Below are positions 5,409-62,795 of a stretch of 64,000 nt of DNA, in pieces. Positions within the stretch are counted from its first letter, which is position 1, and each line of letters opens with the position of its first letter. The position numbers and the translations under genes were made by a program. The notes under the pieces were generated by a model that was not told the origin of the DNA, searched no databases, and was given only the letters and a program-made list of their open reading frames with translations. Source of the DNA: Burkholderiales bacterium 70-64 (GTDB lineage: Bacteria > Pseudomonadota > Gammaproteobacteria > Burkholderiales > Burkholderiaceae_E); NCBI GenBank assembly GCA_001898645.1, contig MKUQ01000025.1, positions 62,001 through 126,000 on the forward strand, read 5' to 3'.

Positions 5409-5435
5409 CCGCGCAGTAGACTCCCTCACACGTTC
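5409..5435 (-). repeat. 3'-end repeat, half element (a)
   Basis: Read on the minus strand this is GAACGTGTGAGGGAGTC followed by TACTGCGCGG. It spans the stop codon of the aldehyde dehydrogenase gene, which ends Asn-Val-stop as AAC-GTG-TGA. It is one of at least seven copies of the same sequence at gene 3' ends in this window. Here only one arm is present, and it lies between two convergent genes. Confidence 0.6.
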
Positions 5436-6922
5436 TCGAAACGAATGCCCTGTGCGAGCGGAAGCTCGCGCGAGTAGTTGACGGTGTTGGTGGCGCGGCG
5501 CATGTAGCTGCGCCACGAGTCCGAGCCCGATTCGCGGCCGCCGCCGGTTTCCTTCTCGCCGCCGAAGGCCCCGCCGATCTCGGCGCCCGAAGGGCCGATG
5601 TTGACGTTGGCGATGCCGCAGTCGCTGCCTGACGAGGACAGGAACGCCTCGGCCTCGCGCAGATCGTTGGTGAAGATGCACGAGGACAGCCCCTGCGGCA
5701 CGTCGTTGTGCAGGGCGATCGCTTCCTCGAGGGTGTCGTAGCGCAGCGCGTAGAGGAGGGGCGCGAAGGTCTCCTCGTGCATCTCGGCGCCCTGCGCGTC
5801 GACCTCGGCGATGCAGGGACGCACGTACCAGGCGTCGGGGAATGCCTCGGCCAGCATGCGCTCGCCGCCGGTGATGCGCGCGCCGGCGGCCGCCAGCCGC
5901 GCGATCACCGCCTGCATGCGCTCGAAGGCGTGGCGGTCGATGAGCGGCCCGACCAGGGTGCCGGCCTCGAGCGGATTGCCCACCCGCACCGACGCCCAGG
6001 CCTGCTTCAGGCGCACGAGCAGCGCGTCGGCGACGTCGCGATGCACGATCAGCCGGCGCAGCGTGGTGCAGCGCTGCCCGGCGGTGCCCACGGCGCTGAA
6101 CAGGATCGCGCGCACGGCCAGATCGAGGTCGGCCGAAGGCGCGACGATCATCGCGTTGTTGCCGCCCAGCTCGAGCAGGCAGCGGCCGAAGCGGGCGGCC
6201 ACGCGCGGGCCGACCTCGCGGCCCATGCGGGTCGAGCCGGTCGCGCTCACCAGCGCCACGCCGGGATGATCGACCAGCGCCATGCCGGCCTCGCGCCCGC
6301 CGACTACGACCTGCACCAGGTTCGCCGGCGCCTGGCCGAAGCGCGCCGCGGCGCGCTCGAACAGCGCCCGGCAGGCCAGCGCGGTGAGCGGCGTCTTCTC
6401 CGACGGCTTCCACACCACCGGGTCGCCGCACACCAGGGCCAGCGCGGCGTTCCAGGCCCATACCGCGGCCGGGAAGTTGAACGCGCTGATCACGCCCACC
6501 ACCCCGAGCGGGTGCCAAGTCTCCATCATGCGGTGGCCGGGGCGCTCGGAGGCCATGGTCAGGCCGTAGAGCTGGCGCGACAGGCCGAGGGCGAAATCGC
6601 AGATGTCGATCATCTCCTGGACTTCGCCCAGGCCCTCCTGGAGGATCTTGCCGGTCTCGAGGGTGACCAGGCGCCCGAGCGGATCCTTGTGCGCGCGCAG
6701 CTCCTCGCCGAACAGGCGCACCAGCTCGCCGCGCCTCGGGGCGGGCACGCCGCGCCACTCGAGGAAGGCGCGCTGCGCCGCGCTCACGGCCGCGGCCACC
6801 TCGGGCGCCCCCTGCATGGGCAGCCGCGCCAGCGTGCGGCCGTCGATCGGCGAGACCACGCACAGCTCGCCCTCGGCCAGCGCGGCCGCTTCCAGGCCCA
6901 GGGCGCGCAGCAGTTCGTTCAT
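5426..6922 (-). CDS. Aldehyde dehydrogenase, ALDH7 (aminoadipate-semialdehyde) type
   Basis: A 498-residue NAD(P)-dependent aldehyde dehydrogenase. Catalytic residues are visible: Asn149 in SAFNFP, Glu251 in LELGGNN and Cys285 in GTAGQRCTT. The GNN and GQRCTTLRR signatures and overall length resemble the ALDH7/AmaB group, which oxidises aminoadipate semialdehyde in lysine breakdown. It is the last gene of a minus-strand cluster (TPP enzyme, FAD protein, TauE-like exporter), so its substrate may instead be an aldehyde made by that cluster. The start at 6922 (MNELLRALG) excludes an upstream in-frame extension that would run into the exporter gene. Confidence 0.85.
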   Translation of the reverse strand: MNELLRALGLEAAALAEGELCVVSPIDGRTLARLPMQGAPEVAAAVSAAQRAFLEWRGVPAPRRGELVRLFGEELRAHKDPLGRLVTLETGKILQEGLGEVQEMIDICDFALGLSRQLYGLTMASERPGHRMMETWHPLGVVGVISAFNFPAAVWAWNAALALVCGDPVVWKPSEKTPLTALACRALFERAAARFGQAPANLVQVVVGGREAGMALVDHPGVALVSATGSTRMGREVGPRVAARFGRCLLELGGNNAMIVAPSADLDLAVRAILFSAVGTAGQRCTTLRRLIVHRDVADALLVRLKQAWASVRVGNPLEAGTLVGPLIDRHAFERMQAVIARLAAAGARITGGERMLAEAFPDAWYVRPCIAEVDAQGAEMHEETFAPLLYALRYDTLEEAIALHNDVPQGLSSCIFTNDLREAEAFLSSSGSDCGIANVNIGPSGAEIGGAFGGEKETGGGRESGSDSWRSYMRRATNTVNYSRELPLAQGIRFENV

Positions 6923-6945
6923 GCGTTCTCCATCGTATCCCTGAC

Positions 6946-7665
6946 TCACGACACCAGCTCCCGCACCAGCAGCACCAGCGCGGCGGCGGCCGACACCGCC
7001 AGCACGACCGGACGCACCCGGCCGCGATCGATGTAGCCGATCGCGTGGCGCGACAGGCGGTAGCCGAGCAGCAGCGGCGCGAGCAGCCACAGGCTGGCGA
7101 GCAGCTGCATGAGGTCGAGGTGGCCCACCGCCGCCAGCGATGCCAGCGAGACGGTCGATCCGAGCACGAAGAACGCCCCCATGGTGGCGCGGATCGTCGG
7201 GCCGGGCACGTTCTGGTAGACCAGCGCCATCGGCGGCGAGCCCACCGAGGTGATGGTGCCCATGTAGCCGGAGGCGAGGCCGGCTGCCACCAGGTTGCCG
7301 CGCGTGGGCTGCACCCGCCAGCCCACGACGCTGAGCGCGATGGCGGCAAGGATCATCAGTGAGAACACCGTGGCGAACAGCGACGGCGGCAGCAGGGCGA
7401 TGGTCGCCCCGGCGCCGGCCGCCCCGAGCGCGCGCCCGACCGTGGCGAAGCCCAGCCCCGGCACGTCGATCGCGCCGCGCTCGCGCAGCGCCGTCATCAC
7501 CGACAGCAGCAGCGACAGCAGCAGCAGCGAGCCCGGCACCAGGCGCGGGTCGAGCATCACCGCCACCGGCGCGGCGAGCACGCCGAAGCCGACGCCGGTC
7601 GAGGCCTGCAGCATGGCCGCCGCGGCGACGGTCGCGGCCAGGGCGAGCACGACGGGCCAGTCCAT
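6946..7665 (-). CDS. TauE/SafE (TSUP) family membrane exporter
   Basis: A 239-residue, very hydrophobic inner-membrane protein with about seven or eight predicted helices. The duplicated TauE/SafE motifs are recognisable as QASTGVGFGVLAAP near residue 21 and SGYMGTITSVGSPPMAL near residue 135. Family members export sulfite, sulfoacetate or other small organic anions. Its position between the FAD oxidoreductase and the aldehyde dehydrogenase suggests it removes an anionic product or takes up the substrate of that pathway. The substrate cannot be named. Confidence 0.85.
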   Translation of the reverse strand: MDWPVVLALAATVAAAAMLQASTGVGFGVLAAPVAVMLDPRLVPGSLLLLSLLLSVMTALRERGAIDVPGLGFATVGRALGAAGAGATIALLPPSLFATVFSLMILAAIALSVVGWRVQPTRGNLVAAGLASGYMGTITSVGSPPMALVYQNVPGPTIRATMGAFFVLGSTVSLASLAAVGHLDLMQLLASLWLLAPLLLGYRLSRHAIGYIDRGRVRPVVLAVSAAAALVLLVRELVS

Positions 7666-7705
7666 GCCGGCGCTTCCGGTCCGGGCGGGACGCGCCGGCG
7701 GGTCG

Positions 7706-9037
7706 TCAGGCCGCGGCGCGCACCGGCACCCGCGCCGGGGCGCCGGCGCGGGCGGCGAACACGTCGGTGAGACCGGCCGCGGCCACGCGGGCGCGGATGC
7801 TGGCGACGTCGGTGGTGTAGGTGCCGCGCGCCTTCATGCGCTCGAAGTAGACCGAGCCGCAGAAGGTGAACTTCAGCCCCAGGCCCTCCTCGGTCTGCAT
7901 CTGCTCGCGCACGTGGCTGATCGCGTCGCCCACCGCCAGGCTGTCGGGCAGCACCAGCGGCGGCTCGCCGAGGGCGAGGCGGACGGCGTTGTAGCCGGCC
8001 AGCACGCCGGTGGTCACCACCTCGGTGTGGCCGACCAGCAGCCCGGCCTTCTCGCCGGCGCAGAACAGGTTGTCCACGCCGTCGACCTTGAGCGCGTCGT
8101 CGCGCGGCGCCATGCCGAGGTAGCGCACCGAGTTGCCGATGCCGCCGGAGTAGGGGTCCTCGTAGCGGGCGTTCTCGAAGCCGGGCACGCTGCGCAGCTC
8201 GGCGAGCGGGATGAAGGGCGTCATCAGCTTGGCGTGGCCGGTGTCGAGCAGGACGATGTTGTCCTTGTAGGCGGGCAGCGCGTACTGCTGGCAGGCCTTG
8301 AAGCTCAGCTTGTCGACGGCGCCGGCATCCTGCTGGCCCTCGGGGATCGGCACCACCGCCACGCCGGTGCGCTCGAGCTCCTCGCGCAGCGCCGGGGCGA
8401 GCGACTCCTTGTGCAGCTTGCACGATCCGCTCATGGCGCCGGTGCGGCCCAGCTTGCGCCCCGCGATGTCGGGCACGCCGGCGCGGCCGGAGATGCTGAC
8501 GCGGTTGCCGAAGGTATGGCAGCGCAGCACGCACATGGCGCAGCCGTTGCCGTGCGCGTTGCACACGTTGGGCACGCCGGCGCTGCCGGTGGTCTCGATG
8601 AAGGCATCGGCCGCGAAGCGCCGCGCGCCTTCGCTCTTGTGCGTCGAGACGGCGGCGATGCGCCGCCCGGCCATCTCCACGTCGGTGATGCGCACGTTGT
8701 AGTGCACCTGCACGCCGGCGTCGGCCAGCACCCGCCGCACCGCCGGCTCGATCGCGGCCACGTTGTACAGCGAGGCGTGGCTGTGGCCGGGGAACTCGAC
8801 GCCGGTATGCAGCGCACAGGCGTCCATGGCGGCGAACATCTCGCCGCCGCCCATGGCGATCATCTCCTCGGCGGCGGTGAAGCGGCCGTTGTTGCGGAAG
8901 ATGCCCCCCACCAGGCCGGTGCCCAGCAGCATGTCGGAGCGCTCGAGCAGCAGCACCTCGGCGCCCTGTTTCGCGGCGGACACGGCGGCGGCGCAGCCGG
9001 CCCAGCCGCCGCCGATGACGACGATCTTCATGTTCAT
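7706..9037 (-). CDS. FAD-dependent oxidoreductase with a C-x6-C-x2-C-x3-C motif
   Basis: A 443-residue protein. The N-terminal FAD-binding motif is VVIGGGWAGCAAAVSAAKQG, followed by the acidic end of the second strand (LLLERS). A conserved-looking segment around residues 155-180 holds Cys159, Cys166, Cys169 and Cys173, a spacing that could bind an iron-sulphur cluster. The C-terminal FAD contact is VDGVDNLFCAGEKAGLLVGH. It resembles PF12831-type FAD oxidoreductases. Its ATG overlaps the stop of the TPP enzyme gene (ATGA at 9034-9037), so the two proteins are made together and may interact. The substrate is unknown. Confidence 0.8.
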   Translation of the reverse strand: MNMKIVVIGGGWAGCAAAVSAAKQGAEVLLLERSDMLLGTGLVGGIFRNNGRFTAAEEMIAMGGGEMFAAMDACALHTGVEFPGHSHASLYNVAAIEPAVRRVLADAGVQVHYNVRITDVEMAGRRIAAVSTHKSEGARRFAADAFIETTGSAGVPNVCNAHGNGCAMCVLRCHTFGNRVSISGRAGVPDIAGRKLGRTGAMSGSCKLHKESLAPALREELERTGVAVVPIPEGQQDAGAVDKLSFKACQQYALPAYKDNIVLLDTGHAKLMTPFIPLAELRSVPGFENARYEDPYSGGIGNSVRYLGMAPRDDALKVDGVDNLFCAGEKAGLLVGHTEVVTTGVLAGYNAVRLALGEPPLVLPDSLAVGDAISHVREQMQTEEGLGLKFTFCGSVYFERMKARGTYTTDVASIRARVAAAGLTDVFAARAGAPARVPVRAAA

Positions 9038-10809
9038 GCTTCCTCTCGTTCGGTGGCATCGGCCATGGCGGGGCGGCGCAGCGGGTCGCGCCCGGCGGCC
9101 TTCAGCCACGAGTAGACCGGCGGCAGATCGCTCATCAGCGGCTCGGTGACCACGTCGAGGAAGGCCGGCCCGCGGTGCGCGAACGCCTCGTCGAGCGCCG
9201 TGCCCAGCTGGTCGGGATCCTCGACGCGCCATGAGCGGATGCCGTAGGCCGCGGCGACCCGGCTCATGTCGCCGGGGGTGAAGTCGACCGACATGAACTT
9301 GCTGCGGCTGTGCAGCGACTGCAGCGTCTTGATCCAGCCGAAGCAGCCGTTGTTGAAGTGCACCAGCACCGCCGGCACGTTCAGCCGCACCAGTGTTTCG
9401 AGCTCGCCGGCCGACATGCCCAGCGAGCCGTCGCCGAACAGCGCGACCGGGCGTGCGTCGGGGCGCGCGAACCAGGCGCCGACCACCGCCGGAATCGCGT
9501 AGCCCAGGCCGCCGAACGAGCGCGGGATCAGCACCCGCGAGCCGTCGCCGCCGAGCCGCAGGAAGCGGGTGATGTGCGGGGTCGGCGTGCCGGCATCGGC
9601 GATCACGATCGAGGGCGAGGGCAGGCGCCGGTTGAGCTCGTGCACCACGCGCTGCGCCTTGAGCGGCGTGCTGCGCGCGTGCAGCACCGCCTGCGAGTCG
9701 GCCCAGAAGCGGTCGCGGTCGACGTTGAGCTCGCGCACCCACGCCGAGGGCGGCACGGCCGGGCCGGGCAGCTGCGCGAGCAGGTCGTCGAGCACCAGCC
9801 GGGCGTCGCCCGCCACGCTCAGCGTGTTCTCGAAGTTGTTGCCGAGCACCGTCGGGTCGAGGTCGATCTGCAGGATCCGGCGGCCCGGGCGCGGTGAGGG
9901 GAGCGTCCACTTGATGGTGGACACCGAGCCCATCTTGCAGCCGACGTACAGCAGCACGTCGGCCTCCTCGACGGCGCGGTGCGCATGCGGGTGGAAGCCG
10001 TTGTCGCCCACCACGCCCAGTGCCAGCGGGTGGTCGTCGGGCATCGTGCCCTGGCCGGAGATGGTGGTCACCACCGGCGCGCCGAGACGCTCGGCGAGCC
10101 GGCACACCTCGGTGTTGGCCCCGGAATGGTTCACTCCGCCGCCGGCGACGATCACCGGCCGCCATGCGTCGGCCAGCTGCGCGGCCAGCGCGGCGATGGT
10201 CTCGGCGCTGCCGCGCGTGCGGTAGGCCGGATAGCTGCGGCACTCGGGCTCGGCATGCAGGCCGACGCGCTCGGGCGCCACCGGCCCGGTCATGGTCTCG
10301 GTGGGGAAGGCCAGGTGCACGGCGCCCGGGCGGCCGCTGGTGGCGATGCGGAAGGCCCGGCGCACGGTCTCGGGGATCTTTTCGGCCGTCTTGAGGAAAG
10401 AGGAGAACTTGGTGACCGGCTCGAACAGCTTGTGGTGCTCCATCTCGGTGATGGTGCCCTTGCCCTCGCCGGCGAGCGACACGCCCGAGGTGAACAGGAT
10501 CACCGGGATCGACGAGGCATTGGCTTCCGCCACCCCCGGCACCGAGTAGAGCGCACCGGCGCCGCTCGGGCATTCGCATACGCCGGGACGGTGGGACAGG
10601 CGCGCGTAGGCGTCGGCCATGAAGGTGGCCGAGCGCTCGTCGCGGGCCATCACGTGGCGGATGCGGTCGCCGGCGTCGTACAGCGCCTCGTAGAACGACA
10701 GGCTGGTGTCGCCGGGCACCCCGAACACCACTTCGACCCGGTATTCGAGCAGCATGCGTACCAGCGCCTGGGCGCCGGTGAGCCGGCCCCCGGCAGCGAT
10801 TTCGGACAT
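9034..10809 (-). CDS. Thiamine-diphosphate enzyme, acetolactate synthase-like
   Basis: A 591-residue protein with the three domains of the acetolactate synthase/pyruvate oxidase superfamily. The N-terminal pyrimidine-binding domain carries the activating glutamate at about residue 58 (ARDERSATFMADAYAR). A central domain follows (VIVAGGGVNHSGAN). The C-terminal domain has the thiamine-diphosphate motif GDGSLGMSAGEL...NN. These enzymes act on 2-oxo acids by decarboxylation, ligation or oxidation; which of these applies is not visible. ATG at 10809 is preferred over an in-frame upstream start because GAGGG lies just before it. The leader contains GntR-type boxes. Confidence 0.82.
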   Translation of the reverse strand: MSEIAAGGRLTGAQALVRMLLEYRVEVVFGVPGDTSLSFYEALYDAGDRIRHVMARDERSATFMADAYARLSHRPGVCECPSGAGALYSVPGVAEANASSIPVILFTSGVSLAGEGKGTITEMEHHKLFEPVTKFSSFLKTAEKIPETVRRAFRIATSGRPGAVHLAFPTETMTGPVAPERVGLHAEPECRSYPAYRTRGSAETIAALAAQLADAWRPVIVAGGGVNHSGANTEVCRLAERLGAPVVTTISGQGTMPDDHPLALGVVGDNGFHPHAHRAVEEADVLLYVGCKMGSVSTIKWTLPSPRPGRRILQIDLDPTVLGNNFENTLSVAGDARLVLDDLLAQLPGPAVPPSAWVRELNVDRDRFWADSQAVLHARSTPLKAQRVVHELNRRLPSPSIVIADAGTPTPHITRFLRLGGDGSRVLIPRSFGGLGYAIPAVVGAWFARPDARPVALFGDGSLGMSAGELETLVRLNVPAVLVHFNNGCFGWIKTLQSLHSRSKFMSVDFTPGDMSRVAAAYGIRSWRVEDPDQLGTALDEAFAHRGPAFLDVVTEPLMSDLPPVYSWLKAAGRDPLRRPAMADATEREEA

Positions 10810-10833
10810 CGCGCCCTCACGGGTTGGATTGCG

Positions 10834-10860
10834 GTATGCAATACTGTATGCAATATACAA
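10834..10860. promoter_or_regulatory. GntR-type operator cluster before the TPP-enzyme operon
   Basis: Two direct copies of GTATGCAATA (10834-10843 and 10846-10855), 12 bases apart, run into ATATACAA (10853-10860). FCD-subfamily GntR regulators commonly bind sites built on TTGTATAC/GTATACAA. The next gene upstream encodes such a regulator, and a related GTATACAA box lies on its other side (11668-11675). The spacing suggests a site overlapping the operon promoter. Confidence 0.6.
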
Positions 10861-10874
10861 TCACGTCAAGAGGG

Positions 10875-10902
10875 CCGCGCAGTAGATTCATTCACGCGTT
10901 CA
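10875..10902 (-). repeat. 3'-end repeat, half element (b)
   Basis: On the minus strand TGAACGCGTGAATGAATC followed by TACTGCGCGG. The first TGA is the stop codon of the GntR regulator gene. Only one arm of the element is present. It sits between two genes running in the same direction, so it is not confined to convergent gene pairs. Confidence 0.6.
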
Positions 10903-11631
10903 GCGGCTGGAGGCGGCTTCGAGGCGTAGCGGCGGCGGGGCGGGCGCAATGTCCGGCACGGGCTCGTGGGCGGACGCATGGGAGATGCCGACGCTCATCA
11001 CGTGGCGGCTCGCCAGCAGGGCGGCGAGCTCCTCGTCTCCCTCGGCCACCGCCCGCAGGATCGCCGCATGCTCGGCCCACGACTGCCGGGCGCGCCAGCT
11101 GAGGCTGGTCGAGTACAGCCAGCGGGTCTTGTCGCGCAGCGACTGCACGAAGCCGTTGAGGTGGCGGTTGCGCCCGATGCGCGCCATCAGGTCGTGGACC
11201 TCCGTGTGCAGCGCCGCCAGCGTTTCTCCGTCGTCGGCGGCGCTGGCCGCTTCACCGCGGGCGATCAGCTCCGCGATCTCCTCGCGCTCGGCCTCGCCGC
11301 AGCGGCGGGTGGCCAGGCGCGCGCACAGGCCCTCGAGCGAGGCGCGCAGCTCGACGATCTCGCGCGCCTCCTCGGCCGACACCTTGGTGACCGAGGCCCC
11401 GCGCCGCGGACTGATCTCGACCAGACCCTCGGCCTGCAGCACGCGCAGGGCCTCGCCCACGGGATTGCGCGACACGCCCAGCTCCGTGGCCACCTGCTCC
11501 TCGACCAGCCGTTCCCCCGGGCGGAACCTGCCGCTGAAGATGGCCTGCCGCAGGGCGTCGGTCACGGCCTGACGCAGCGTCAGGTGGGTGGCGCCGAGCT
11601 TCGGGACGGGTCTGGCGGGCAGCGTGTTCAC
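10900..11631 (-). CDS. GntR family transcriptional regulator (FCD subfamily)
   Basis: A 243-residue DNA-binding regulator. The N-terminal winged helix-turn-helix reads LRQAIFSGRFRPGERLVEEQ then VATELGVSRNPVGEALRVLQ. The C-terminal all-helical FCD ligand domain includes FHxE-like and His-containing metal/ligand positions (HTEVHDLMARIGRN and WAEHAAILRAV). The start is uncertain: GTG at 11631 gives the expected N-terminus but has no strong ribosome-binding site, and longer in-frame starts would overlap the divergent gene. It lies between a catabolic operon and a divergent importer operon, both with candidate operators, and is the likely local regulator. Confidence 0.85.
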   Translation of the reverse strand: MNTLPARPVPKLGATHLTLRQAVTDALRQAIFSGRFRPGERLVEEQVATELGVSRNPVGEALRVLQAEGLVEISPRRGASVTKVSAEEAREIVELRASLEGLCARLATRRCGEAEREEIAELIARGEAASAADDGETLAALHTEVHDLMARIGRNRHLNGFVQSLRDKTRWLYSTSLSWRARQSWAEHAAILRAVAEGDEELAALLASRHVMSVGISHASAHEPVPDIAPAPPPLRLEAASSR

Positions 11632-11667
11632 CGTTGGATGAAAAACCCTTGATCTATGTCGTCTACA

Positions 11668-11675
11668 GTATACAA
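11668..11675. promoter_or_regulatory. GTATACAA box in the importer promoter region
   Basis: GTATACAA, matching the boxes upstream of the TPP-enzyme operon, lies between the GntR start and the start of the substrate-binding protein gene. It is placed to control the importer, the regulator itself, or both. This is a short motif and would need binding data to confirm. Confidence 0.5.
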
Positions 11676-11746
11676 AAAACCACCCAGGATATCCGGAAGA
11701 CCGCGACCGGACCGAGCGCGGCAGCAGCCCCACCGGGAGGAGCACC

Positions 11747-13225: not shown

Positions 13226-13262
13226 GGCGCACGGCGGACGGACGCGGCGAGGCGGAGGCAGC

Positions 13263-14183: not shown

Positions 14184-14190
14184 GGCTCGC

Positions 14191-15134: not shown

Positions 15135-15138
<4 letters not shown>
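14191..15138 (+). CDS. ABC importer permease, DppC type
   Basis: A 315-residue permease forming the heterodimeric channel with the DppB-type protein. DppC features are seen: the N-terminal helix, the [10 protein letters not shown] segment, [20 protein letters not shown], and the EAA loop [21 protein letters not shown] basic tail ends the protein. The stop overlaps the ATG of the first ATPase gene. Confidence 0.9.
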
Positions 15139-17238
<2,100 letters not shown>

Positions 17239-17250
<12 letters not shown>

Positions 17251-17301
17251 GGGAACCGTCGCGACCTCGGGCCGCTCGCGACGGTTCCCTCACGCGTCTT
17301 G
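17239..17301. terminator. 26-bp perfect inverted repeat at the dppF/ald junction, full element (c)
   Basis: Arms at 17239-17264 and 17276-17301 are perfectly complementary around an 11-base loop (CCTCGGGCCGC). The dppF-type stop codon (17248-17250) is inside the left arm. No T-run follows on either strand, so it is not a canonical intrinsic terminator, but position and stem strength favour a bidirectional 3'-end or termination role. The arm carries GACGCGTGAGGGAACC, the shared core of the repeat family, and the loop region is shared with the element at 60324. Confidence 0.65.
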
Positions 17302-17343
17302 TGCGTTGGCGAGATGGGAAGGTGGCACCTGCATGTCGACGAG

Positions 17344-17360
17344 CTACTTGCTGGATTCCT

Positions 17361-17371
<11 letters not shown>
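17344..17371 (-). repeat. 3'-end repeat, half element (d)
   Basis: Minus-strand GAAACGTGTGAAGGAATC followed by CAGCAAGTAG. The alanine dehydrogenase gene ends inside it as AAC-GTG-TGA, the same Asn-Val-stop ending as the aldehyde dehydrogenase at 5426. Confidence 0.55.
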
Positions 17372-18494
<1,123 letters not shown>

Positions 18495-20830: not shown

Positions 20831-20860
20831 GAACGCGTGAATGAATCTACTGCGTGTTCA
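20831..20860. repeat. 3'-end repeat (e) between gloB-like and cytochrome genes
   Basis: Plus-strand GAACGCGTGAATGAATC followed by TACTGCGTGTTC, starting on the base after the gloB-like TAA. Its right end supplies the TGA of the convergent cytochrome gene. GAACGCG and CGTGTTC can form a short imperfect stem, so it may serve both transcripts. Confidence 0.55.
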
Positions 20861-27869: not shown

Positions 27870-27879
27870 TCGGGCGCAA

Positions 27880-27908
27880 TTGTCATCACCCCTACGTTAC
27901 GGTATATC
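27880..27908 (+). promoter_or_regulatory. Sigma-70 promoter of the DUF485/symporter operon
   Basis: TTGTCA (27880-27885), a 17-base spacer and TATATC (27903-27908) make a strong match to the sigma-70 consensus. It lies 11 bases after the srkA stop and about 29 bases before the DUF485 start codon. Confidence 0.65.
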
Positions 27909-27936
27909 TACTGGGCCCGCTCCACAGGAGGCAAGC

Positions 27937-28272
27937 ATGGCCGAAGCGACCGTACCGCGCATCGACTGGCAGGCGATCGAGCGAGACCCCCGTTTCCATG
28001 CCCTCCACACCCGCAAGACCCGCTTCCTGTGGGGCCTGATGGTGTTCTCGATCGTCTTCTACTTCCTGCTGCCGATCGGCGCGGCGTACACGCCCGGGCT
28101 GTTCGCGACGCGCGTGTGGGGCCCGGTCAACGTCGGGCTGCTGTTCGCGCTGGCCGAGTTCGTCGTGGCATGGTCGATCGCCTTCGTCTATTCGCGCCGC
28201 GCCAACACCGAGTTCGACGCCATGGCCGACGAGCTGGTGCGCGAGGCCGAGAAGATCGGAGGCTGGCCATGA
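27937..28272 (+). CDS. DUF485 membrane protein (YjcH-like)
   Basis: A 111-residue inner-membrane protein with two helices (LWGLMVFSIVFYFLLPIGAA and VNVGLLFALAEFVVAWSIAF). DUF485 proteins are encoded just before acetate/solute:sodium symporters, as here, and are thought to support the symporter. ATG at 27937 is preceded by AGGAGG at 27926-27931. The stop overlaps the symporter start (ATGA). Confidence 0.9.
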   Translation: MAEATVPRIDWQAIERDPRFHALHTRKTRFLWGLMVFSIVFYFLLPIGAAYTPGLFATRVWGPVNVGLLFALAEFVVAWSIAFVYSRRANTEFDAMADELVREAEKIGGWP

Positions 28273-47686: not shown

Positions 47687-47713
47687 GCGGCCCGGCCCGG
47701 CTCTCCGGCCGGC

Positions 47714-48388: not shown

Positions 48389-48413
48389 GCGTGGCCCCCG
48401 GTTTACCCTGAAT

Positions 48414-48438: not shown

Positions 48439-48486
48439 GTGATGGCCGGCGTAGACTGGCCCGCAGGAAGGGGAGCGAGGCGACCT

Positions 48487-52136: not shown

Positions 52137-52137
52137 C

Positions 52138-53223: not shown

Positions 53224-53252
53224 CAACGACCCCAAGAGAGAGGAGCAATACG

Positions 53253-54488: not shown

Positions 54489-54495
54489 GCAGGGA

Positions 54496-54528
54496 GCCGG
54501 CCTCCCGCAGCGGGTGCGGGAGGCCGGC
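54496..54528 (+). terminator. Strong hairpin between the binding-protein gene and livF
   Basis: A 14-bp perfect stem (GCCGGCCTCCCGCA at 54496-54509 and complement at 54515-54528) with a five-base loop. No T-run follows. It stands seven bases after the binding-protein stop and probably stabilises that part of the mRNA or attenuates read-through, giving more binding protein than ATPase. Confidence 0.6.
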
Positions 54529-54552
54529 GCCCATCGTCGCGAAACCGGATCC

Positions 54553-55389: not shown

Positions 55390-55396
55390 GCGAGTG

Positions 55397-56656: not shown

Positions 56657-56735
56657 AGCGCATGCCGCGGCGCTGCGCAGCCCGGCCACGCACCGTGGCC
56701 GGTGCGATCGGGCGTGCGCGGCGCGCAATCTCGGG

Positions 56736-57185
56736 CTACTGGTCGGGAATCTCGGCCTCGACGAGCTTTGCCAGCAGTGCCAGCGATTCCTGCCAGCCGA
56801 GATAGCACGCCTCGACCGGGATGGCCTCGGGAATGCCCTCCTGCACGATGCTCAGATCGGTTCCGCAGGACACCGCCGACAGGGAGATCGTCGTGCGCAT
56901 CTCTCCCGGCAGGTTCGGATCGTCGAAGCGGTCCGTATGGCGGATGCGTTCCCCGGGCAGCAGCTCGAGATACTCCCCGCCGAAGGCATGGCTGCGGCCG
57001 GTGCCGAAGTTGGTGAACGACATCCGGTAGCTGCCGCCGACCTTGGCGTCGAGGTGGTGGACCTTGCCGGTGAAGCCGTTCGGAGGCAGCCACTTGACCA
57101 TCGCGTCGGGATCGAGGAAGGCGCGATAGAGGCGTTCCGGGGCGGCGCGGATCACGCGGTGGAGTCGGACGGTGTTGGTGGACAT
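56736..57185 (-). CDS. SRPBCC/AHSA1-domain protein
   Basis: A 149-residue START-fold protein of the Aha1/CalC-like group, with [20 protein letters not shown] and [20 protein letters not shown]. These proteins bind hydrophobic ligands, but most have no assigned role. ATG at 57185 ([10 protein letters not shown]) fits the family N-terminus; a longer start would run into the divergent gene's promoter. It is convergent with the PaaK-like gene. Confidence 0.85.
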
Positions 57186-57286
57186 GGCAGTCGACCTCCG
57201 TTGCAGGGAACCGGAAGAGCATCGTAAGGCCATCTCCGCGCCGACCACCCCGGCGCTACACTCGAGCGTCCAACCCGGAGGGCACG

Positions 57287-58228
57287 ATGCCCCGCTTCCA
57301 CACGCTGAAGTACGCGCGCGATCGCGCCAATCCGCGCATCGCGCGCATCACGCTGAACCGGCCCGAGCGGCTGAACGCGATCGACGAGCGCATGCCGGGC
57401 GAGATCCGGCGCGCAGTGGAAGCGGCCAACGCCGACGATGCGGTGCACGTGATCGTGCTGGCGGGCGCCGGGCGCGCGTTCTGCGCCGGCTACGACCTGC
57501 AGGCCTTCGGCGAAGGGATGGTCGACCATCCCTGCCAGCAGGAATCGTCTCCGTGGGACCCCATGCTCGACTACCGCACCATGAAGCGCTTCACCGAGGA
57601 CTTCATGAGCCTGTGGCACAGCTACAAGCCGACCATCGCCCAGGTGCACGGCCACGCGGTGGCCGGCGGCAGCGACATCGCGTTGTGCTGCGACCTGCTG
57701 GTGATGGCCGATGACGCGCACATCGGCTACATGCCGGCGCGCGTCTGGGGCTGCCCGACCACCGCGATGTGGGCCTTCCGGCTCGGGCCGATGCGGGCCA
57801 AGCGCATGATGTTCACCGGCGACACGATCGACGGCACCACGGCGAAGGAGTGGGGCCTGGCCACCGATGCCGTGCCGCCCGCGCAGCTCGAGGCGGCCGT
57901 GCGCGAGCTCGCCGGGCGCATCGCCGGCGTGCCGCGCGGCCAGCTGATGATGCACAAGCTGGTGGTCAACCAGGTGCTCGATGCGATGGGGCTCGAGCAG
58001 ACGCAGATGTTCGCTACGCTGTTCGACGGCATCACGCGCCACGATCCACAGGGCCTGTGGTTCCGCCGGCGCGCGCAGCTGCACGGCTACAAGGACGCGG
58101 TGGCCTGGCGCGACTCGGGCCGGCCGATACCCGAGGCGGCCGAGGCGCAGGCGCTGGCGGCGCAGATGCAGCGCGAGCTGGCGCGCAAGCCCCGGGCCGG
58201 GCGTGCGGGCGGCGCCCGCAAGCGGTGA
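57287..58228 (+). CDS. Enoyl-CoA hydratase/isomerase (crotonase) family protein
   Basis: A 313-residue crotonase-fold protein. The CoA/oxyanion segments are [16 protein letters not shown] and [20 protein letters not shown]. The usual second catalytic glutamate position reads ARVWGCPTT rather than the PE(V/I)x(L/I)G form, so it may not be a simple hydratase. The C-terminus is Arg/Lys-rich and about 40 residues longer than the core. CGGAGGG precedes the ATG. It may act on CoA esters made by the preceding operon. Confidence 0.83.
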
Positions 58229-58250
58229 CGACCGGAGTGAGAACAGACTC

Positions 58251-59438
58251 CTAGACGATCGGCTCGGCCAGGATCTCCCCCAGGCGCACGACGCGGTTGC
58301 GTCCTTCGGCCTTGGCGCGGTAGACGCAGTGGTCGGCGTGCACCAGCACGCGCTCGAGCGATTCGGCATCGCCGACCGGCACGGCGCCGATGCTGGCGGT
58401 CAGCACGATCACCGCGTCGCCTGAGCGCAGGGGCGCCGCTGCCAGCGCCTTGCGCACGCCGTCGATGATCCGCTTTCCGCCGTCGTCGCTGTGGCTGCGG
58501 ATCAGCGCGCAGAACTCCTCGCCGCCGTAGCGGCCGACGAAGCCGGACGGCCTGATCGCGCCGTGCAGCACGCGGGCGGCATGGCGCAGCGCACGGTCGC
58601 CGACCGAGTGGCCATAGCGGTCGTTGACCGACTTGAAGTGGTCCAGGTCGATCATCAGCAGGTAATGGACCGTCCCGGCGGGATAGGGGCGGCGCAGCCG
58701 TTCGCGCGCGAGCTCGAAGAAGTGCGCGCGCGAGTACAGGCCGGTCAGCTCGTCGGTGGTCGCGCGCCGGTGCAGCTCTCCGGATACGCGCGCATGGAGG
58801 ATCATCTGGACGATCTGTGCGAGCGCGATCGGACTCACCACGAAGATCAGCACGAAGGCGATCTGGCTGGTGCCGGGGGTGAGCGCGCCCCCGGACACGG
58901 AGGCGCCCAGCCATACCGTGACGGCGCGCGCCAGGTGGGCGCCCGCGTAGCCGACGAAGAGCCAGCGCAGCGCCAGGGCATAGCCCTGCCGGCGCCACTG
59001 CGGCGTGCGTGCGATCATCCAGGCGATGGCGGCCGGCCACAGGGTGTGCACGGCCGAGAAGGCGACGACGCGCAGTCGCGCGCGCTGCGGATCGTTGTCC
59101 AGCCACGCCCACAGCAGCGCGAGGCCGGCGAGCTGCAGCACGAACAGCCAGGTGGGCTGCGTGCGTCCGAACAGCCGCATCGTCGCGTCGACGCAGGCCA
59201 CGATGCCGAAGCTCATCAGCGCGTTGGCGCTGGCGTGGGCCAGTATGGGGGGCAACAAGCCGCGCATGCTCAGCAGCAGCAGTCCGGCCGCGGTGGTCGC
59301 CATCGCCGCCGCATAGCGGCGCAGCGACGCTGCGTCGGCCCGGTACATGGGTTGCAGAGCGGCGAAGGTCAGGGCGCCGAGCGCGGCCATGCAGGCACCC
59401 ACCAGGAAGGCGGTGCGTGGATCGAAAAAAGGAGGCAT
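58251..59438 (-). CDS. Membrane diguanylate cyclase (GGDEF)
   Basis: A 395-residue protein. About seven hydrophobic helices fill residues 1-210, resembling integral sensory modules, followed by a GGDEF domain (about 225-390). The active site reads GRYGGEEFCALI, an active GGEEF variant, with DLDHFKSVNDRYGH upstream. The inhibitory RxxD site five residues before it is absent. It makes cyclic di-GMP in response to an unknown membrane signal. Confidence 0.9.
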   Translation of the reverse strand: MPPFFDPRTAFLVGACMAALGALTFAALQPMYRADAASLRRYAAAMATTAAGLLLLSMRGLLPPILAHASANALMSFGIVACVDATMRLFGRTQPTWLFVLQLAGLALLWAWLDNDPQRARLRVVAFSAVHTLWPAAIAWMIARTPQWRRQGYALALRWLFVGYAGAHLARAVTVWLGASVSGGALTPGTSQIAFVLIFVVSPIALAQIVQMILHARVSGELHRRATTDELTGLYSRAHFFELARERLRRPYPAGTVHYLLMIDLDHFKSVNDRYGHSVGDRALRHAARVLHGAIRPSGFVGRYGGEEFCALIRSHSDDGGKRIIDGVRKALAAAPLRSGDAVIVLTASIGAVPVGDAESLERVLVHADHCVYRAKAEGRNRVVRLGEILAEPIV

Positions 59439-59492
59439 CTCGGGGCTCAGTATCGTCGCCGTACGGCCATCGGTCCCGGGCGGAATTCACGG

Positions 59493-59520
59493 CTCCGACG
59501 GGCGGGGCCGCCCGTCGGAG
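59493..59520. repeat. 13-bp inverted repeat in a divergent intergenic region
   Basis: CTCCGACGGGCGG (59493-59505) and its complement (59508-59520) are separated by two bases. It lies in the 285-base region between the divergent GGDEF and paaY-like genes. It could be an operator, a cruciform, or a terminator for an unseen short transcript. The rest of the gap shows no supported gene. Confidence 0.4.
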
Positions 59521-59723
59521 GAACGCGCTTCCGGCTGGCGGCCGGCGTCTCGTCGTCGCGACGGGTGCTGCGCCGCAATGGAGGCTGCGCCGGGGCGGGC
59601 GTCGCGCCGCGATGGATCATGAAGCGGGCGGATGCTGCAGCGCGACAGGTGCGGTTCGGCGCGGCGATGCCTGGCGCATCCGGATGATAAAGTCGAAAAT
59701 TCCGCTTCCCTTCGGAGTCCCGC

Positions 59724-60323
59724 GTGCCAGCCGGTCCCACCGTCTATGCGTTCGAGGGCATCACGCCGGTGATCGACCCTACGGCCTACGTCCATCCGGG
59801 CGCGTTCCTCATCGGCGACGTGATCGTCGGGCCGGGCTGCTACGTCGGGCCGGGCGCGGCGCTGCGCGGCGACTTCGGCCGCATCGTGATGGAGCGCAAT
59901 GCCAACCTGCAGGACAACTGCGTGGTGCATTCGCGACCCGACCTCGACTGCGTGATGGAGGAGGAAAGCCACATCGGCCACGGCGCGATCATCCATTGCG
60001 GGCGCATCGGACGCGACGCGATGGTCGGCATGAATGCGGTGGTGATGGACCGTGCCACGGTGGGCGAGCAGGCCATCGTGGCCGCGATGGCCTTCGTCAA
60101 GGTCGACATGCAGATCCCGCCGCGCGTGCTGGTGGCGGGGATGCCGGCGCGCGTGGTGCGGACGCTCACCGAGGGCGACATCGCGCGCAAGCGCGCCGGC
60201 ACGGCGCTGTACATCGAGCTCGCGCGGCGCTGCCGGGAGGGCCTGGTGCCGGCGCTCGCGCTCGAGGCACCCGAGGCCGGGCGCCGCCGGGTGAGCTGGA
60301 CCTTCGGCGAGCACCTCGGCTGA
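59724..60323 (+). CDS. paaY: PaaY-like left-handed beta-helix thioesterase / gamma-carbonic-anhydrase family protein
   Basis: A 199-residue hexapeptide-repeat protein. Zinc histidines are in NCVVHSRP and GHGAIIH. The extended C-terminus (about 30 residues after the helix) matches PaaY, a thioesterase that clears toxic CoA dead-end products in phenylacetate breakdown, rather than plain gamma carbonic anhydrases. GTG at 59724 is preceded by GGAG at good spacing. The rest of the paa pathway is not in the window. Confidence 0.82.
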   Translation: MPAGPTVYAFEGITPVIDPTAYVHPGAFLIGDVIVGPGCYVGPGAALRGDFGRIVMERNANLQDNCVVHSRPDLDCVMEEESHIGHGAIIHCGRIGRDAMVGMNAVVMDRATVGEQAIVAAMAFVKVDMQIPPRVLVAGMPARVVRTLTEGDIARKRAGTALYIELARRCREGLVPALALEAPEAGRRRVSWTFGEHLG

Positions 60324-60444
60324 GAACGTGTGAAGGAATCTGCTGCGCGGCCCGATCTCGCGCCTGCGATGCTCGCCGTACCCCAGTACGGCTGCGCTTC
60401 TCGGCGCGACCTCGGGCCGCTCGCTACGATTCCTTCACACGTTC
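60324..60444. terminator. Extended inverted repeat after paaY, full element (f)
   Basis: Outer arms GAACGTGTGAAGGAATC (60324-60340) and its complement (60428-60444) are perfect over 17 bp. Inside, GCGGCCCGA pairs with TCGGGCCGC and CCGTAC with GTACGG, so most of the 121 bases can fold into one long interrupted hairpin. The left arm follows directly on the paaY-like TGA. It shares the segment GCGACCTCGGGCCGCTCGC with the element at 17239. Confidence 0.65.
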
Positions 60445-60508
60445 TGTGGGGCGCCGGCCTGCGGCGGCCGCACCAAGCGGCGAAGGAGGGGGCCGAAAGA
60501 GGAGGCGC

Positions 60509-61426
60509 TCAGTGATCGAGCAGCCAGTCTCCGTCGCGGCGTAGCTGGCCCTGCGTCACCAGCTCGTCGGCGGCCCAGGCGAGCGCCGCTTCGTAGGTCA
60601 TGCCGGCCCTGGCGGCGGCTGCGCGCATCACGGTGGCGTCGCGCACCCGTTCGATCAGTTGCGTCGACTCGATGCGTTCGATGTCGAGCAGCAGGAACTT
60701 CACCAGCACCTTCAGCGCGTGGCGCGCATGCTTGGGCGGATCGGCGCGCATCGCCGCCAACCGGCCGAAGGCGCGCGCGAGCGCGCCGCGTACGTCGGTG
60801 AAGGCCGGCCCGTGGCCGGGCAGCACCACGTCGACGGGCAGCGAGGCGATCAGCTCGAGCACCGCCTGCTGCTCGGCGAAGCCGGAGTCTCCGTCGAGCT
60901 CGGGGAAGATGATGCCGAAGCCCTGCTCCCACAGCGCGTCGGCCGAGATCAGGAGGCGCTCGTGCGCGCAGTGGAAGATCAGGCTCCTCGGGTCGTGGCC
61001 GGGTGCGGCCAGCACCTGCCAGGCCAGCCCGCCCAGCCGCAGGGTGTCGCCGGGCGCCAGCGTCGCGCCGTGGCGAAACGGCGGGCAGCGCTGGCCGGTC
61101 CCGCTATAGCCGAGGGCCGCTTCGTCCCAGGCGGCCACGTCGGCGGCGCTCGCCTGCGGGATCGCGATCGGGCAGCCGAAGGCGTGCGCCAGCGCGGCAT
61201 TGCCGCCGCAGTGGTCGGAGTGCAGGTGGGTGTTGACGATGCCGGCGAGCCGCGCGCCGCCGGCATCGGCGAGCAGGCGGCGCATCAGTGCGACGGCGAG
61301 GTCGGCGTGCTTGACATAGCCGGTATCGACCACGACGGCCTCGCCGCCGTCGAAGCCGACCACCTGGTTCGAGGACAGCCAGTCGCGCTGGACGAAGCGC
61401 AGCGAGGGGGGCAGCCCGGGCATCAT
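60509..61426 (-). CDS. Metallo-beta-lactamase fold hydrolase
   Basis: A 305-residue hydrolase. The zinc motif THLHSDHCGGN gives His67, His69, Asp71 and His72, with more ligands in APGHDPRSL and LPGHGP. The C-terminal 80 residues are helical. It is not a GloB type. Twelve bases after the DUF1289 gene, it may share the liu-region transcript. The substrate is unknown. Met codons at 61426 and 61423 are both possible starts. Confidence 0.83.
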   Translation of the reverse strand: MMPGLPPSLRFVQRDWLSSNQVVGFDGGEAVVVDTGYVKHADLAVALMRRLLADAGGARLAGIVNTHLHSDHCGGNAALAHAFGCPIAIPQASAADVAAWDEAALGYSGTGQRCPPFRHGATLAPGDTLRLGGLAWQVLAAPGHDPRSLIFHCAHERLLISADALWEQGFGIIFPELDGDSGFAEQQAVLELIASLPVDVVLPGHGPAFTDVRGALARAFGRLAAMRADPPKHARHALKVLVKFLLLDIERIESTQLIERVRDATVMRAAAARAGMTYEAALAWAADELVTQGQLRRDGDWLLDH

Positions 61427-61438
61427 GCGGCGTGCCGC

Positions 61439-61735
61439 TCAGCGCGCGCCGCGGCGCTGCTCGATCGCCGACCAGACCGCGCGTTTGGCATCGTCGTCGA
61501 GCGAGCCCCAGGCAGCGATCTCGTCGAGCGTGCGCAGGCAGCCCGCGCACAGGCCGGTGGCCGCATCGATGCGGCACACCGAGATGCATGGCGAAGGGAC
61601 CGGCGCGGCACGGAGTGCTGCGGCGGCCTCGGCCGTTCCGGTCGGTTCATGCCGTTCGGCCAGGGTGCCGGGCGCGGCCGCTGCGGTCGACGAGCCGGGT
61701 GCGGCCGGCCGCATGGGCGATCCCGCGCCGCTCAT
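61439..61735 (-). CDS. DUF1289 protein
   Basis: A 98-residue protein. The C-terminal half is DUF1289, with four cysteines in SPCISVCRIDAATGLCAGCL and the following DEIAAWGSL, a likely metal site of unknown role. The first 45 residues are an Ala/Gly/Pro-rich tail. Its ATG overlaps the stop of the HMG-CoA lyase gene. Confidence 0.85.
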   Translation of the reverse strand: MSGAGSPMRPAAPGSSTAAAAPGTLAERHEPTGTAEAAAALRAAPVPSPCISVCRIDAATGLCAGCLRTLDEIAAWGSLDDDAKRAVWSAIEQRRGAR

Positions 61736-62655
61736 GCCGGTGCGGGATCGCGCTGGTGCCGGGCGGCCAGCGCGTTGCCGGCGCGCGAGGCGCTGCGCCG
61801 GCCCAGCTGCGCGGAGATCCACTGGCCGGTGTCGACCAGCCGGTCGAGGTCGAGTCCGGTCTCGATGCCCAGGCCGTGCAGCAGGTAGACCACGTCCTCG
61901 GTGGCGACGTTGCCGGTGGCGCCCTTGGCGTAGGGGCAGCCGCCCAGGCCGGCGATCGACGAATCGAAGCGCGCCACGCCGCACTGCAGCGCCGCCATCA
62001 CGTTGGCCACCGCCTGGCCGTAGGTGTCGTGGAAGTGGCCCGAGAGCTGCGCCAGCGGCACTTCGCGGGCCACCGCCTCGAACACCCGCGCCACATGGCC
62101 CGCCGTGCCCACGCCGATGGTGTCGGCGATGCCGATCTCGTCGCAGCCGAGATCGCGCAGCCGCATCGAGACGTCGACCACCGCGGCTACCGGCACCTCG
62201 CCCTGGTAGGGGCAGCCGAAGGCGACCGAGACCGCCGCGCGCACCCGCAGCCGGTGGGCCTTGGCGGCCTGCGCCACCGGGCGGAAGCGCTCGATGCTTT
62301 CGGCGACCGAGCAGTTGATGTTGCGCCGGGAGAAGGCTTCGCTGGCCGAGCCGAAGATGACCACTTCGTCGGCGCCCGCGGCGAGCGCCGCCTCGAAACC
62401 CTTCATGTTGGGCGTGAGCACCGACAGCTTCACGCCGGAGCGGCGCGGCAGCCGGGCCATGACCTCGGCCGCGTCGGCCATCTGCGGCACCCACTTGGGC
62501 GAGACGAAGGAGGTCGCCTCGAGCTGGCGCACGCCGGCCGCGAGCAGGCGTTCGCACAGCTCGACCTTGACGTCGGTGGAGACCGGCTGCTTCTCGTTCT
62601 GCAGTCCGTCGCGCGGACCGACCTCGGTGATCAGGACTCGGCTGGGCAGGTTCAT
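61732..62655 (-). CDS. Hydroxymethylglutaryl-CoA lyase
   Basis: A 307-residue TIM-barrel enzyme splitting HMG-CoA into acetyl-CoA and acetoacetate, the last step of leucine degradation. Substrate motif EVGPRDGLQNE, metal ligands in LSGHFHDTYG and the catalytic-cysteine loop GLGGCPYAKGATGNVATED are intact. ATG at 62655 is chosen since it begins the conserved N-terminus MNLPSRVLITEVG. The methylcrotonyl-CoA carboxylase gene lies just upstream. Confidence 0.94.
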   Translation of the reverse strand: MNLPSRVLITEVGPRDGLQNEKQPVSTDVKVELCERLLAAGVRQLEATSFVSPKWVPQMADAAEVMARLPRRSGVKLSVLTPNMKGFEAALAAGADEVVIFGSASEAFSRRNINCSVAESIERFRPVAQAAKAHRLRVRAAVSVAFGCPYQGEVPVAAVVDVSMRLRDLGCDEIGIADTIGVGTAGHVARVFEAVAREVPLAQLSGHFHDTYGQAVANVMAALQCGVARFDSSIAGLGGCPYAKGATGNVATEDVVYLLHGLGIETGLDLDRLVDTGQWISAQLGRRSASRAGNALAARHQRDPAPA

Positions 62656-62749
62656 GACGACTCCGCGGCAGGCCGCCGGCATACGGCCGGCGAACGGCTT
62701 TCCCTTCCAAGCTCCAGTCTAATCCCAAGCCTGCGCGGCCCGCCCCTCT

Positions 62750-62795
62750 GCTGAACGCGTGAAGGAACCGCAGCAGGTTCCTTCACGCGTTCAGC
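62750..62795. terminator. 20-bp perfect inverted repeat after the carboxylase gene, full element (g)
   Basis: Arms at 62750-62769 and 62776-62795 (GCTGAACGCGTGAAGGAACC and complement) with a six-base loop GCAGCA. The carboxylase stop codon (62791-62793) is inside one arm. It stands between two genes of the same direction, so it may attenuate rather than end transcription. It carries the shared repeat core. Confidence 0.65.

What the first reader, a model, noticed from the sequence alone, without database searches (positions are those of the whole stretch)
5409..62795. A repeat with core GAACGYGTGARKGAATC marks the 3' ends of at least seven genes
Copies occur at 5409-5435, 10875-10902, 17239-17301, 17344-17371, 20831-20860, 60324-60444 and 62750-62795. 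Each reads outward from a gene's end, and in most the stop codon is part of the repeat: AAC-GTG-TGA in two genes, GAC-GCG-TGA in one, TGAACGCGTGA in two. Three copies are full inverted repeats with 17-26 bp perfect arms; four are half elements followed by TRCTGCG. None has a T-run. Unrelated genes sharing the same terminal bases, oriented the same way, is not explained by coding. This could be a lineage-specific terminator, an RNA stability or processing site, or a small mobile repeat that targets stop codons.
Basis: partly seen in the sequence, partly recalled or inferred. Interest (0 to 1): 0.7.

Follow-up and report, generated by a model that had tools for sequence, protein, structure and literature searches.

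The report
Mobile DNA hairpin inserted at stop codons
A short non-coding stretch of DNA that folds into a hairpin has spread to many places in this bacterium's genome, nearly always sitting, in the same orientation, right at a gene's stop codon, so that the protein is left unchanged or nearly so.

Summary
The seven copies belong to one 121-bp near-palindromic, non-coding element: 31 near-complete copies in this genome plus shortened and half copies. The window genome is apparently a relative of Lautropia sp. SCN 70-15. The element also occurs in Variovorax.

It is mobile. In Variovorax sp. N23 it sits at the stop codon of a transporter gene; 29 of 29 sampled relatives lack it there, one genome from a later sample shares it. 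secB and six of 13 further genes carry it exactly where relatives have a plain stop. With copies oriented by their distinguishable ends, the same end touches the stop codon in 32 of 33 full copies (30 by rule, two by eye). The stop is often repeated on the far side.

The preferred target is C-TGA-G. Tolerated CTGA sites here are largely stop codons, so target preference plus selection explains most, perhaps not all, of the bias. The hairpin covaries strongly. A terminator is unlikely: no T-run, and copies lie inside rpsJ-rplC, rpsP-rimM and recA-recX. The mobilising enzyme is unknown; IS110 and Y1/RAYT were not found in this genome. New variant of a known kind (MITE/REP-like).

The parts
60324..60444 (+). 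complete 121-bp element, TRCTGCG (L) end first; stop TGA of the upstream gene at 60321-60323 directly precedes it
   Evidence: RNA fold -85.7 kcal/mol, shuffles -47.7, sd 3.8
59724..60323 (+). upstream gene ended at the element; hexapeptide-repeat protein, best NCBIfam PaaY/CaiE (below cut-off)
62750..62795 (-). short palindromic derivative (20-bp arms); TGA of the gene formed by T + GA of the repeat
62791..63972 (-). gene ended by it; biotin carboxylase C-terminal / biotinyl domain protein
17239..17301 (.). palindromic derivative with 26-bp perfect arms; supplies GAC-GCG-TGA to the + strand gene
16219..17250 (+). gene ended by it; oligopeptide-type ABC transporter ATPase (below equivalog cut-offs)
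17344..17371 (-). half copy; supplies AAC-GTG-TGA
17361..18494 (-). gene ended by it; alanine dehydrogenase
20831..20860 (+). L-end half copy directly after TAA
20039..20830 (+). gene ended at it; hydroxyacylglutathione hydrolase-like, MBL fold (below equivalog cut-off)
10875..10902 (-). L-end half copy; TGA formed by T + GA of the repeat
10900..11631 (-). gene ended by it; GntR/FCD regulator (start codon not verified)
5409..5435 (-). L-end half copy; supplies AAC-GTG-TGA
5426..6922 (-). gene ended by it; L-piperidine-6-carboxylate dehydrogenase (aldehyde dehydrogenase family)
5118..5408 (+). convergent FixX-like ferredoxin gene (below cut-off) whose TGA abuts the same half copy from the other side

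Best explanation
It is a small non-autonomous mobile element (MITE-like): 121 bp, non-coding, 17-bp terminal inverted repeats, and an interior that also pairs, so a strand folds into one long hairpin. Shown: it occupies sites that are empty in relatives; the same (L) end faces the gene; it begins at the ancestral stop codon; a stop triplet often follows the far end, giving stop-element-stop, as a 3-bp target duplication would. Inferred: an unidentified transposase or recombinase inserts it in fixed orientation at C-TGA-G sites. Insertion at a TGA stop regenerates TGA next to the gene, so the protein is unchanged; insertions elsewhere in genes are purged. As tolerated CTGA sites in this roughly 70% GC genome are mostly stop codons, survivors pile up there. 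Also inferred: after insertion the hairpin shrinks by internal deletions (to about 100, 67, 62, 58, 45, 37 bp) and to half copies, and the junction loses 1-2 bases while keeping a stop (T|GAAC, TA|GAAC, GAACGTG-TGA).
For: 31 places cover at least 110 of 121 bases at 89-100% identity. Empty site: in Variovorax N23 the gene reads stop-element-stop; of 30 loci fetched only N23's has a pair of element ends, and the 18 others whose junction was printed show a bare stop. secB: all 17 relatives end in TGA, 16 of them after the same last residue His as the window genome, none with an element end. Of 13 further genes, six (apbC, glyA, radC, rpsJ, a ferredoxin, clpA) keep the stop exactly where the element begins, and none of the 50 ortholog loci has a pair of element ends. 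Orientation: L end at a stop in 30 of 33 full copies of the window genome by rule, two more by eye (L030, L034); 27 of 31 in Variovorax by rule; all 27 printed of 30 loci in the wider survey, nine of them already counted. Right flank begins with a stop triplet in 22 of 53 window-genome and 20 of 25 Variovorax rows. Target: C before the stop 37 of 42 against 28 of 63 ordinary genes; G after it 33 of 54 against 24 of 63; right-hand stops 49 TGA, 3 TAA, 2 TAG (some rows are homologous loci). One locus has a 121-bp and a 56-bp form in two genomes.
Against: No autonomous partner or transposase was found. The right-hand stop is absent in 31 of 53 window-genome rows. In a few copies the right-hand triplet is TAA or TAG while the left is TGA (L027, L112, L116), which a strict duplication does not give. 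At the N23 empty site the bases just after the stop differ from G116, so the duplication cannot be read to the base there. Seven of the 13 genes have orthologs with differing tails and do not test the exact point. Target preference does not fully account for the near-absence of off-stop copies: P for at most 2 of 64 runs from 0.08 to 1e-13 with CTGA or CTGAG and is lower still with plain TGA. Fixed orientation is, from general knowledge, unusual for a symmetric DDE transposase with 3-bp duplications.
Confidence: 0.77

Rival explanations
1. Functional 3'-end element: hairpins are kept only where they sit directly at a stop, because there they stabilise, process or tune the mRNA (as REPs within 15 nt of a stop are reported to do in E. 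coli). Positioning is then due to selection for function rather than to insertion specificity.
For: 18 of 41 pairs show compensatory double changes (shuffles 11.3); 139 cells changed on both sides against 45.7, 0 of 500 shuffles as high. Residual excess at stops beyond most CTGA nulls. E. coli REPs within 15 nt of a stop stall ribosomes according to PMC12306157 (passages read).
Against: All orthologs examined lack it, so those genes do not need it. Selection for a hairpin does not predict a fixed L-R orientation of a near-palindrome, nor a repeated stop. One covariation measure, the number of further pair types, is not above shuffles (31 against 30.8, 309 of 500 as high). Covariation may also come from template switching between arms (copies with private symmetric changes, e.g. 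L022).
Confidence: 0.25
2. Integration that recognises stop codons as such, for example coupled to translation termination or transcription, rather than a DNA motif.
For: Very few off-stop copies; TAA and TAG also occur as right-hand triplets (5 of 54); fixed orientation with respect to the gene.
Against: A DNA motif, C-TGA-G, is preferred and predicts much of the bias.
Confidence: 0.12
3. Lineage-specific transcription terminator.
For: Very stable hairpin directly after genes; in 30 of 53 window-genome rows the next gene is convergent.
Against: 0 of 51 rows have 4 or more T in a row in the 10 nt after the hairpin; copies lie between rpsJ and rplC, rpsP and rimM, recA and recX, glyA and nrdR, lspA and coaBC, where efficient termination would be expected to be harmful.
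Confidence: 0.07
4. REP/BIME repeats spread by a RAYT (Y1 transposase).
For: Palindromic, 3' to genes; termini of GTAG REPs often supply a stop codon (PMC3733652, passages read). A single Y1 gene is present in carriers G061, G062, G063 and G154.
Against: No Y1_Tnp in the window genome nor in carrier G080; the Y1 genes found have no copy within the about 1.5 kb fetched on each side, and non-carrier G116 has one too. At 121 bp with TIRs it is not a 20-40 bp tagged REP.
Confidence: 0.04

Closest known systems
Bacterial MITEs of the Correia/NEMIS, ERIC and RUP type
   Same: Non-coding or nearly so, under 200 bp, terminal inverted repeats, dispersed copies, hairpin when transcribed
   Different: Most listed ones have TA termini and are A+T-rich (PMC2229807, passages read); here GC-rich, with a repeated stop triplet and fixed orientation at stop codons
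YPAL/RU-2 of Yersinia
   Same: Palindromic, next to genes, target duplications, empty and filled sites, reported co-translated with upstream genes (PMC2229807, passages read)
   Different: About 168 bp, inverted repeats internal, duplications of 3-26 bp; no exact stop-codon rule in the passages read
GTAG/CGTC-tagged REPs and E. coli REPs
   Same: Palindromic, downstream of genes; some supply a stop codon (PMC3733652) or lie within 15 nt of one (PMC12306157); passages read
   Different: 20-40 bp and tagged; in E. coli 446 of 4,072 predicted REPs, or 260 of 496 in the earlier set cited there, are within 15 nt of a stop, whereas the L-end stops here lie at -7 to +11 of the element
MIRU of mycobacteria
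   Same: Apparently mobile repeat that inserts at gene junctions with little effect on the neighbouring gene (PMC12548453, one passage read)
   Different: Said there to insert at start codons with translational coupling; a 'DTGA target' is recalled and comes from no call

Membership tests
MITE | short non-coding element with terminal inverted repeats, many dispersed copies | tested here: met
   121 bp, 17-bp TIR, 31 near-full places
MITE | empty sites in relatives | tested here: met
MITE | target-site duplication | tested here: met
   stop triplet right of the element in 22 of 53 and 20 of 25 rows, with a stop at the L end; absent or mismatched in the rest
MITE | ends shared with an autonomous transposon | tested here: inconclusive
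   none recognised in the loci fetched, which were not scanned systematically for transposases; IS110 and Y1 absent from the window genome; other families not tested
REP/BIME with RAYT | Y1 (RAYT) transposase in the genome | tested here: not met
   none in the window genome
REP/BIME with RAYT | 20-40 bp palindrome with GTAG or CGTC tag | tested here: not met
   121 bp; an internal GTAG of the window family reads GTCG in the Variovorax copies
intrinsic terminator | hairpin followed by a T-run | tested here: not met
   0 of 51
known RNA family | Rfam match | tested here: not met
   no match at gathering score in the window
IS110-mobilised element | IS110 transposase in carriers | tested here: not met
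   no match in G000, G061, G063, G154, G080; one in G062

The most novel reading that the evidence does not exclude
A mobile hairpin whose integration machinery reads stop codons themselves, of all three kinds and in gene orientation, so that each insertion rebuilds the stop and is invisible to the protein: an inherently harmless insertion strategy in a genome with little free space, by an enzyme that is neither IS110 nor Y1.
Probability: 0.14. Interest if true: 0.85.

Novelty: new variant of a known kind. Interest (0 to 1): 0.56.

Why it matters
It gives a clean natural case of how a selfish element can spread through a compact, GC-rich genome without breaking genes: aim at C-TGA-G in a fixed orientation and rebuild the stop codon. 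Because it enters gene pairs such as rpsJ-rplC, rpsP-rimM and recA-recX, it also lets one measure what a long hairpin placed at a stop codon does to mRNA and translation, a question raised for E. coli REPs. It may mislead annotators about gene ends, terminators and C-terminal residues. The mobilising enzyme would be worth finding, since oriented insertion combined with a 3-bp repeat is unusual (general knowledge, not tested here).

Tried and rejected
Terminator reading: rejected for lack of T-runs and for copies inside gene pairs that are normally co-transcribed. RAYT/REP: no Y1 in the window genome; the Y1 genes of Variovorax carriers have no copy beside them. IS110: no match in the window genome and four of five Variovorax carriers tested. 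Plasmid copies: one weak Comamonadaceae match for the Variovorax form, none for the window form. Idea that T|element|AG/AA/GA junctions mean insertion inside the stop codon without duplication: counted by hand as 6 of 16, against about 3 expected; not convincing, and orthologs of three of these genes mostly have TGA. The first null for stop bias, from the 64-kb window, was small. The 400-kb sample had large gaps without called genes, so I repeated it with gaps limited to 200 and 400 bp. Paper searches listed nothing that by title or abstract describes this element; subscription journals are mostly not held.

Rows dropped or not counted: spurious alternative pairings of the same ends, and L080-L090 as duplicates of later loci. 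In one search, 11 of 29 orthologs whose printed stretch did not reach the stop (later scanned for element ends). In one search, 6 of 17 relatives that my expression missed (read: five end in His-TGA, one in Ala-TGA). In one search, 3 of 30 loci not printed; one printed (L253) has a coding score of 0.08, under the 0.1 rule. In one search the rule found no stop at 3 of 19 short copies and at the matched end of 9 of 24 single ends of the window genome, and at 3 of 31 full and 5 of 6 single Variovorax copies. Of eight window-genome single ends re-inspected, L035 and L043 have a stop at the far end by rule; L048, L070, L062 and L050:3464 have the opposite gene's stop where the remnant begins (by eye from the offsets); L060 has it a little beyond; L064 does not fit. 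The two Variovorax singles shown there, L100 and L130, also have one. Exceptions among full copies: L012 (R end faces the gene) and L108 (no gene called). The second, 58-bp copy in L038 has no gene end either. The '2 of 64' used for the P values takes L012 and L108 as the only misses after inspection, and applies window-genome base composition to the Variovorax copies too.
Full report
What was checked. The seven copies are where the finding puts them, and the stop-codon readings are right except that 17344-17371 does not continue as TRCTGCG. The genome that holds the window (G000, 4.72 Mb, 63 contigs, 98% complete; the window itself is 70.7% GC) has 65 + 67 matches with up to two mismatches, against none for the reversed control. 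My codon-usage gene calls give 63 genes in the window, ending in 47 TGA, 11 TAG and 5 TAA; all seven copies are at stops. These calls are home-made and starts are not reliable; the products of the seven genes were compared with NCBIfam and Pfam.

What it is. 60324-60444 is a complete copy of a 121-bp element. A search of the genome with it returned 31 places covering at least 110 of its bases at 89-100% identity, plus fragments and, because it is near-palindromic, reverse-strand matches. Shorter copies (103-106, 72, 67, 62, 58/59, 45, 40, 37 bp) look like internal deletions of it. At one locus two Variovorax-group genomes carry a 121-bp and a 56-bp form. The two ends can be told apart: the L end continues TRCTGCG, the R end GTAGCGAG or GTCGCGAG. 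Of 24 single ends in the window genome, 8 are labelled L, 4 R and 12 neither; three of the four half copies in the window are L ends.

Where it occurs. Of 61 genomes from the genus outward, the exact 17-mer (with Y at its last variable site) occurs in the window's genome and 3 of 17 genus members, and in 0 of 43 others. A scan of a collection of 84,980 species found 12 stretches with the L end: four in Variovorax boronicumulans Xaverov 112, five in Variovorax sp. N23, one in Variovorax sp. UMC13 and two in Lautropia sp. SCN 70-15 (the window's own records may be left out there). A contig of relative G006 has the same length (5604) and the same copy as one Lautropia contig, so the window's genus appears to be that of Lautropia sp. 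SCN 70-15 (inference). Of 100 genomes of the Variovorax group, 13 match with up to one mismatch, including a subfamily that begins GAAGG and ends CCTTC, a paired change of both arms.

It is mobile and sits at the ancestral stop codon. In Variovorax N23 an ABC-transporter ATPase gene reads TGA, element, TGA. The closest relative in the sample, G116 (92% identical over the query), has a single TGA and then recognisably the same downstream sequence, though the first bases after the stop differ. Of 30 loci fetched, only N23's holds a pair of element ends; the junction itself was printed for 18 others, all bare. G154, met in a later sample, shares the insertion. For secB, all 17 relatives end in TGA, 16 after the same last residue His as the window genome, and none has an element end. 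For 13 further genes, apbC (7 of 7), glyA (3 of 3), radC (4 of 5, the fifth masked), rpsJ (6 of 6), a YfhL-type ferredoxin (3 of 3) and clpA (6 of 6) keep the same last residues; fur differs by one residue, and bfr, recA, rpsP, a formate-dehydrogenase gamma-like gene, L053 and L058 have variable tails. None of the 50 ortholog loci has a pair of element ends; four have a single chance-level 17-mer match. Names of these genes were checked, many on C-terminal pieces and below full-length cut-offs; L053 and L058 were not checked.

Orientation and junctions. Of 33 full copies in the window genome, the L end meets a stop within -10 to +20 of its first base in 30 by rule; L034 (whose gene-side end carries an R-like sequence) and L030 (coding score 0.05) do so by eye; L012 alone has the R end at the gene. 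In Variovorax it is 27 of 31 by rule, and 27 of 27 printed in the wider survey, one with a weak coding score. Offsets cluster at -3 (TGA|GAAC), -1 (T|GAAC), -2 (TA|G) and +7 (GAACGTG-TGA), so the stop lies just before or inside the element. The bases after the R end are a stop triplet in 22 of 53 window-genome and 20 of 25 Variovorax rows. Among copies with a stop directly on the left, C precedes it in 37 of 42 (28 of 63 for ordinary genes); among those with one on the right, G follows in 33 of 54 (24 of 63) (homologous loci are not removed). I read this as oriented insertion at C-TGA-G with a TGA duplication, followed by small deletions that keep a stop; the -1, -2 and +7 forms are explained by that only as inference.

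How strange is the stop bias? In a 400-kb sample of the window genome there are 116 CTGA stops. Limited to gaps of at most 200 or 400 bp, stops are 56-70% of stop plus all non-coding CTGA sites and 79-86% of stop plus those near 3' ends; for CTGAG 66-84% and 81-91%. So target choice plus loss of gene-breaking insertions gives most of the pattern. The chance of at most 2 of 64 off-stop runs from 0.08 (CTGAG, 3' ends only, short gaps) to 1e-13 (CTGA, all non-coding, gaps to 400 bp), and lower for plain TGA, so a residual preference is likely but its size depends on the null. The fixed orientation is not explained by these nulls.

The fold. One strand of the window copy folds to -85.7 kcal/mol (shuffles -47.7, sd 3.8), a Variovorax copy to -63.1 (shuffles -45.9, sd 3.8). 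Over 45 distinct 121-bp copies, 18 of 41 pairs have compensatory double changes (shuffles 11.3); 96.9% of cells pair against 90.9%; cells changed on both sides are 139 against 45.7, with 0 of 500 shuffles as high on these three. The number of further pair types is not raised (31 against 30.8, 309 of 500). The rows are related copies, so this is strong but not independent evidence. It may reflect selection on a folded strand (RNA, or single-stranded DNA during transposition) or arm-to-arm template switching.

Function. Copies lie between rpsJ and rplC, rpsP and rimM, recA and recX, glyA and nrdR, and lspA and coaBC. None of 51 rows (some loci fetched twice) has four or more T in a row in the ten bases after the hairpin. 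A strong terminator is therefore unlikely. Effects on mRNA decay or ribosome release remain possible and untested.

Mobiliser. Not found. IS110 has no match in the window genome and in four of five Variovorax carriers tested. Y1 has none in the window genome and G080; elsewhere it is a single gene without copies beside it, also present in G116, which lacks the L end.

Comparison and novelty. It works like a MITE, and meets the tests of size, inverted repeats, copy number, empty sites and, in many copies, target duplication; a shared-end autonomous transposon was not found. It is not a REP in the strict sense. Precedents for stop-codon proximity exist: GTAG REP termini that supply stops (PMC3733652), E. 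coli REPs near stops (PMC12306157), YPAL (PMC2229807) and MIRU (PMC12548453); I read passages of these, not whole papers. The exact, oriented placement on the stop with its repetition is what I did not find described in the listings or in those passages.

Noticed in passing
L041:2166-2319 and inside L044:2312-2687 (G000:C60:162165-162318, C25 around 27870-28128): A second palindromic repeat family sits inside the apical loop of two copies of the element; its search gave 43 match rows in G000, many of them end fragments or reverse-strand matches. In L044 a further inserted palindromic stretch lies inside the second.
   Followed up: partly
L022:1501-1621, also L010, L019, L020, L026: Several copies carry uncommon changes that are identical in both arms, which suggests template switching between arms as well as selection for pairing.
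   Followed up: partly
L255 against L270 (G073 and G130): The same gene end carries a 56-bp form in one Variovorax-group genome and a 121-bp form in another, which suggests shortening in place.
   Followed up: yes
L196 and L200, downstream of clpA orthologs: Two relatives without the element have a different short palindrome (AGGGCCTGTGAACAGGCCCT and a near copy) a few bases after the same stop codon.
   Followed up: no
window 5406-5435: Two convergent genes share one 27-bp half copy: the FixX-like ferredoxin gene's TGA abuts it at 5408 and the aldehyde dehydrogenase gene takes its stop from inside it.
   Followed up: partly
L033 (rpsP), L013, L015, L019, L020, L042: Where the stop lies inside the element (GAACGTG-TGA), the protein ends in residues encoded by the element, N-V in most.
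   Followed up: partly
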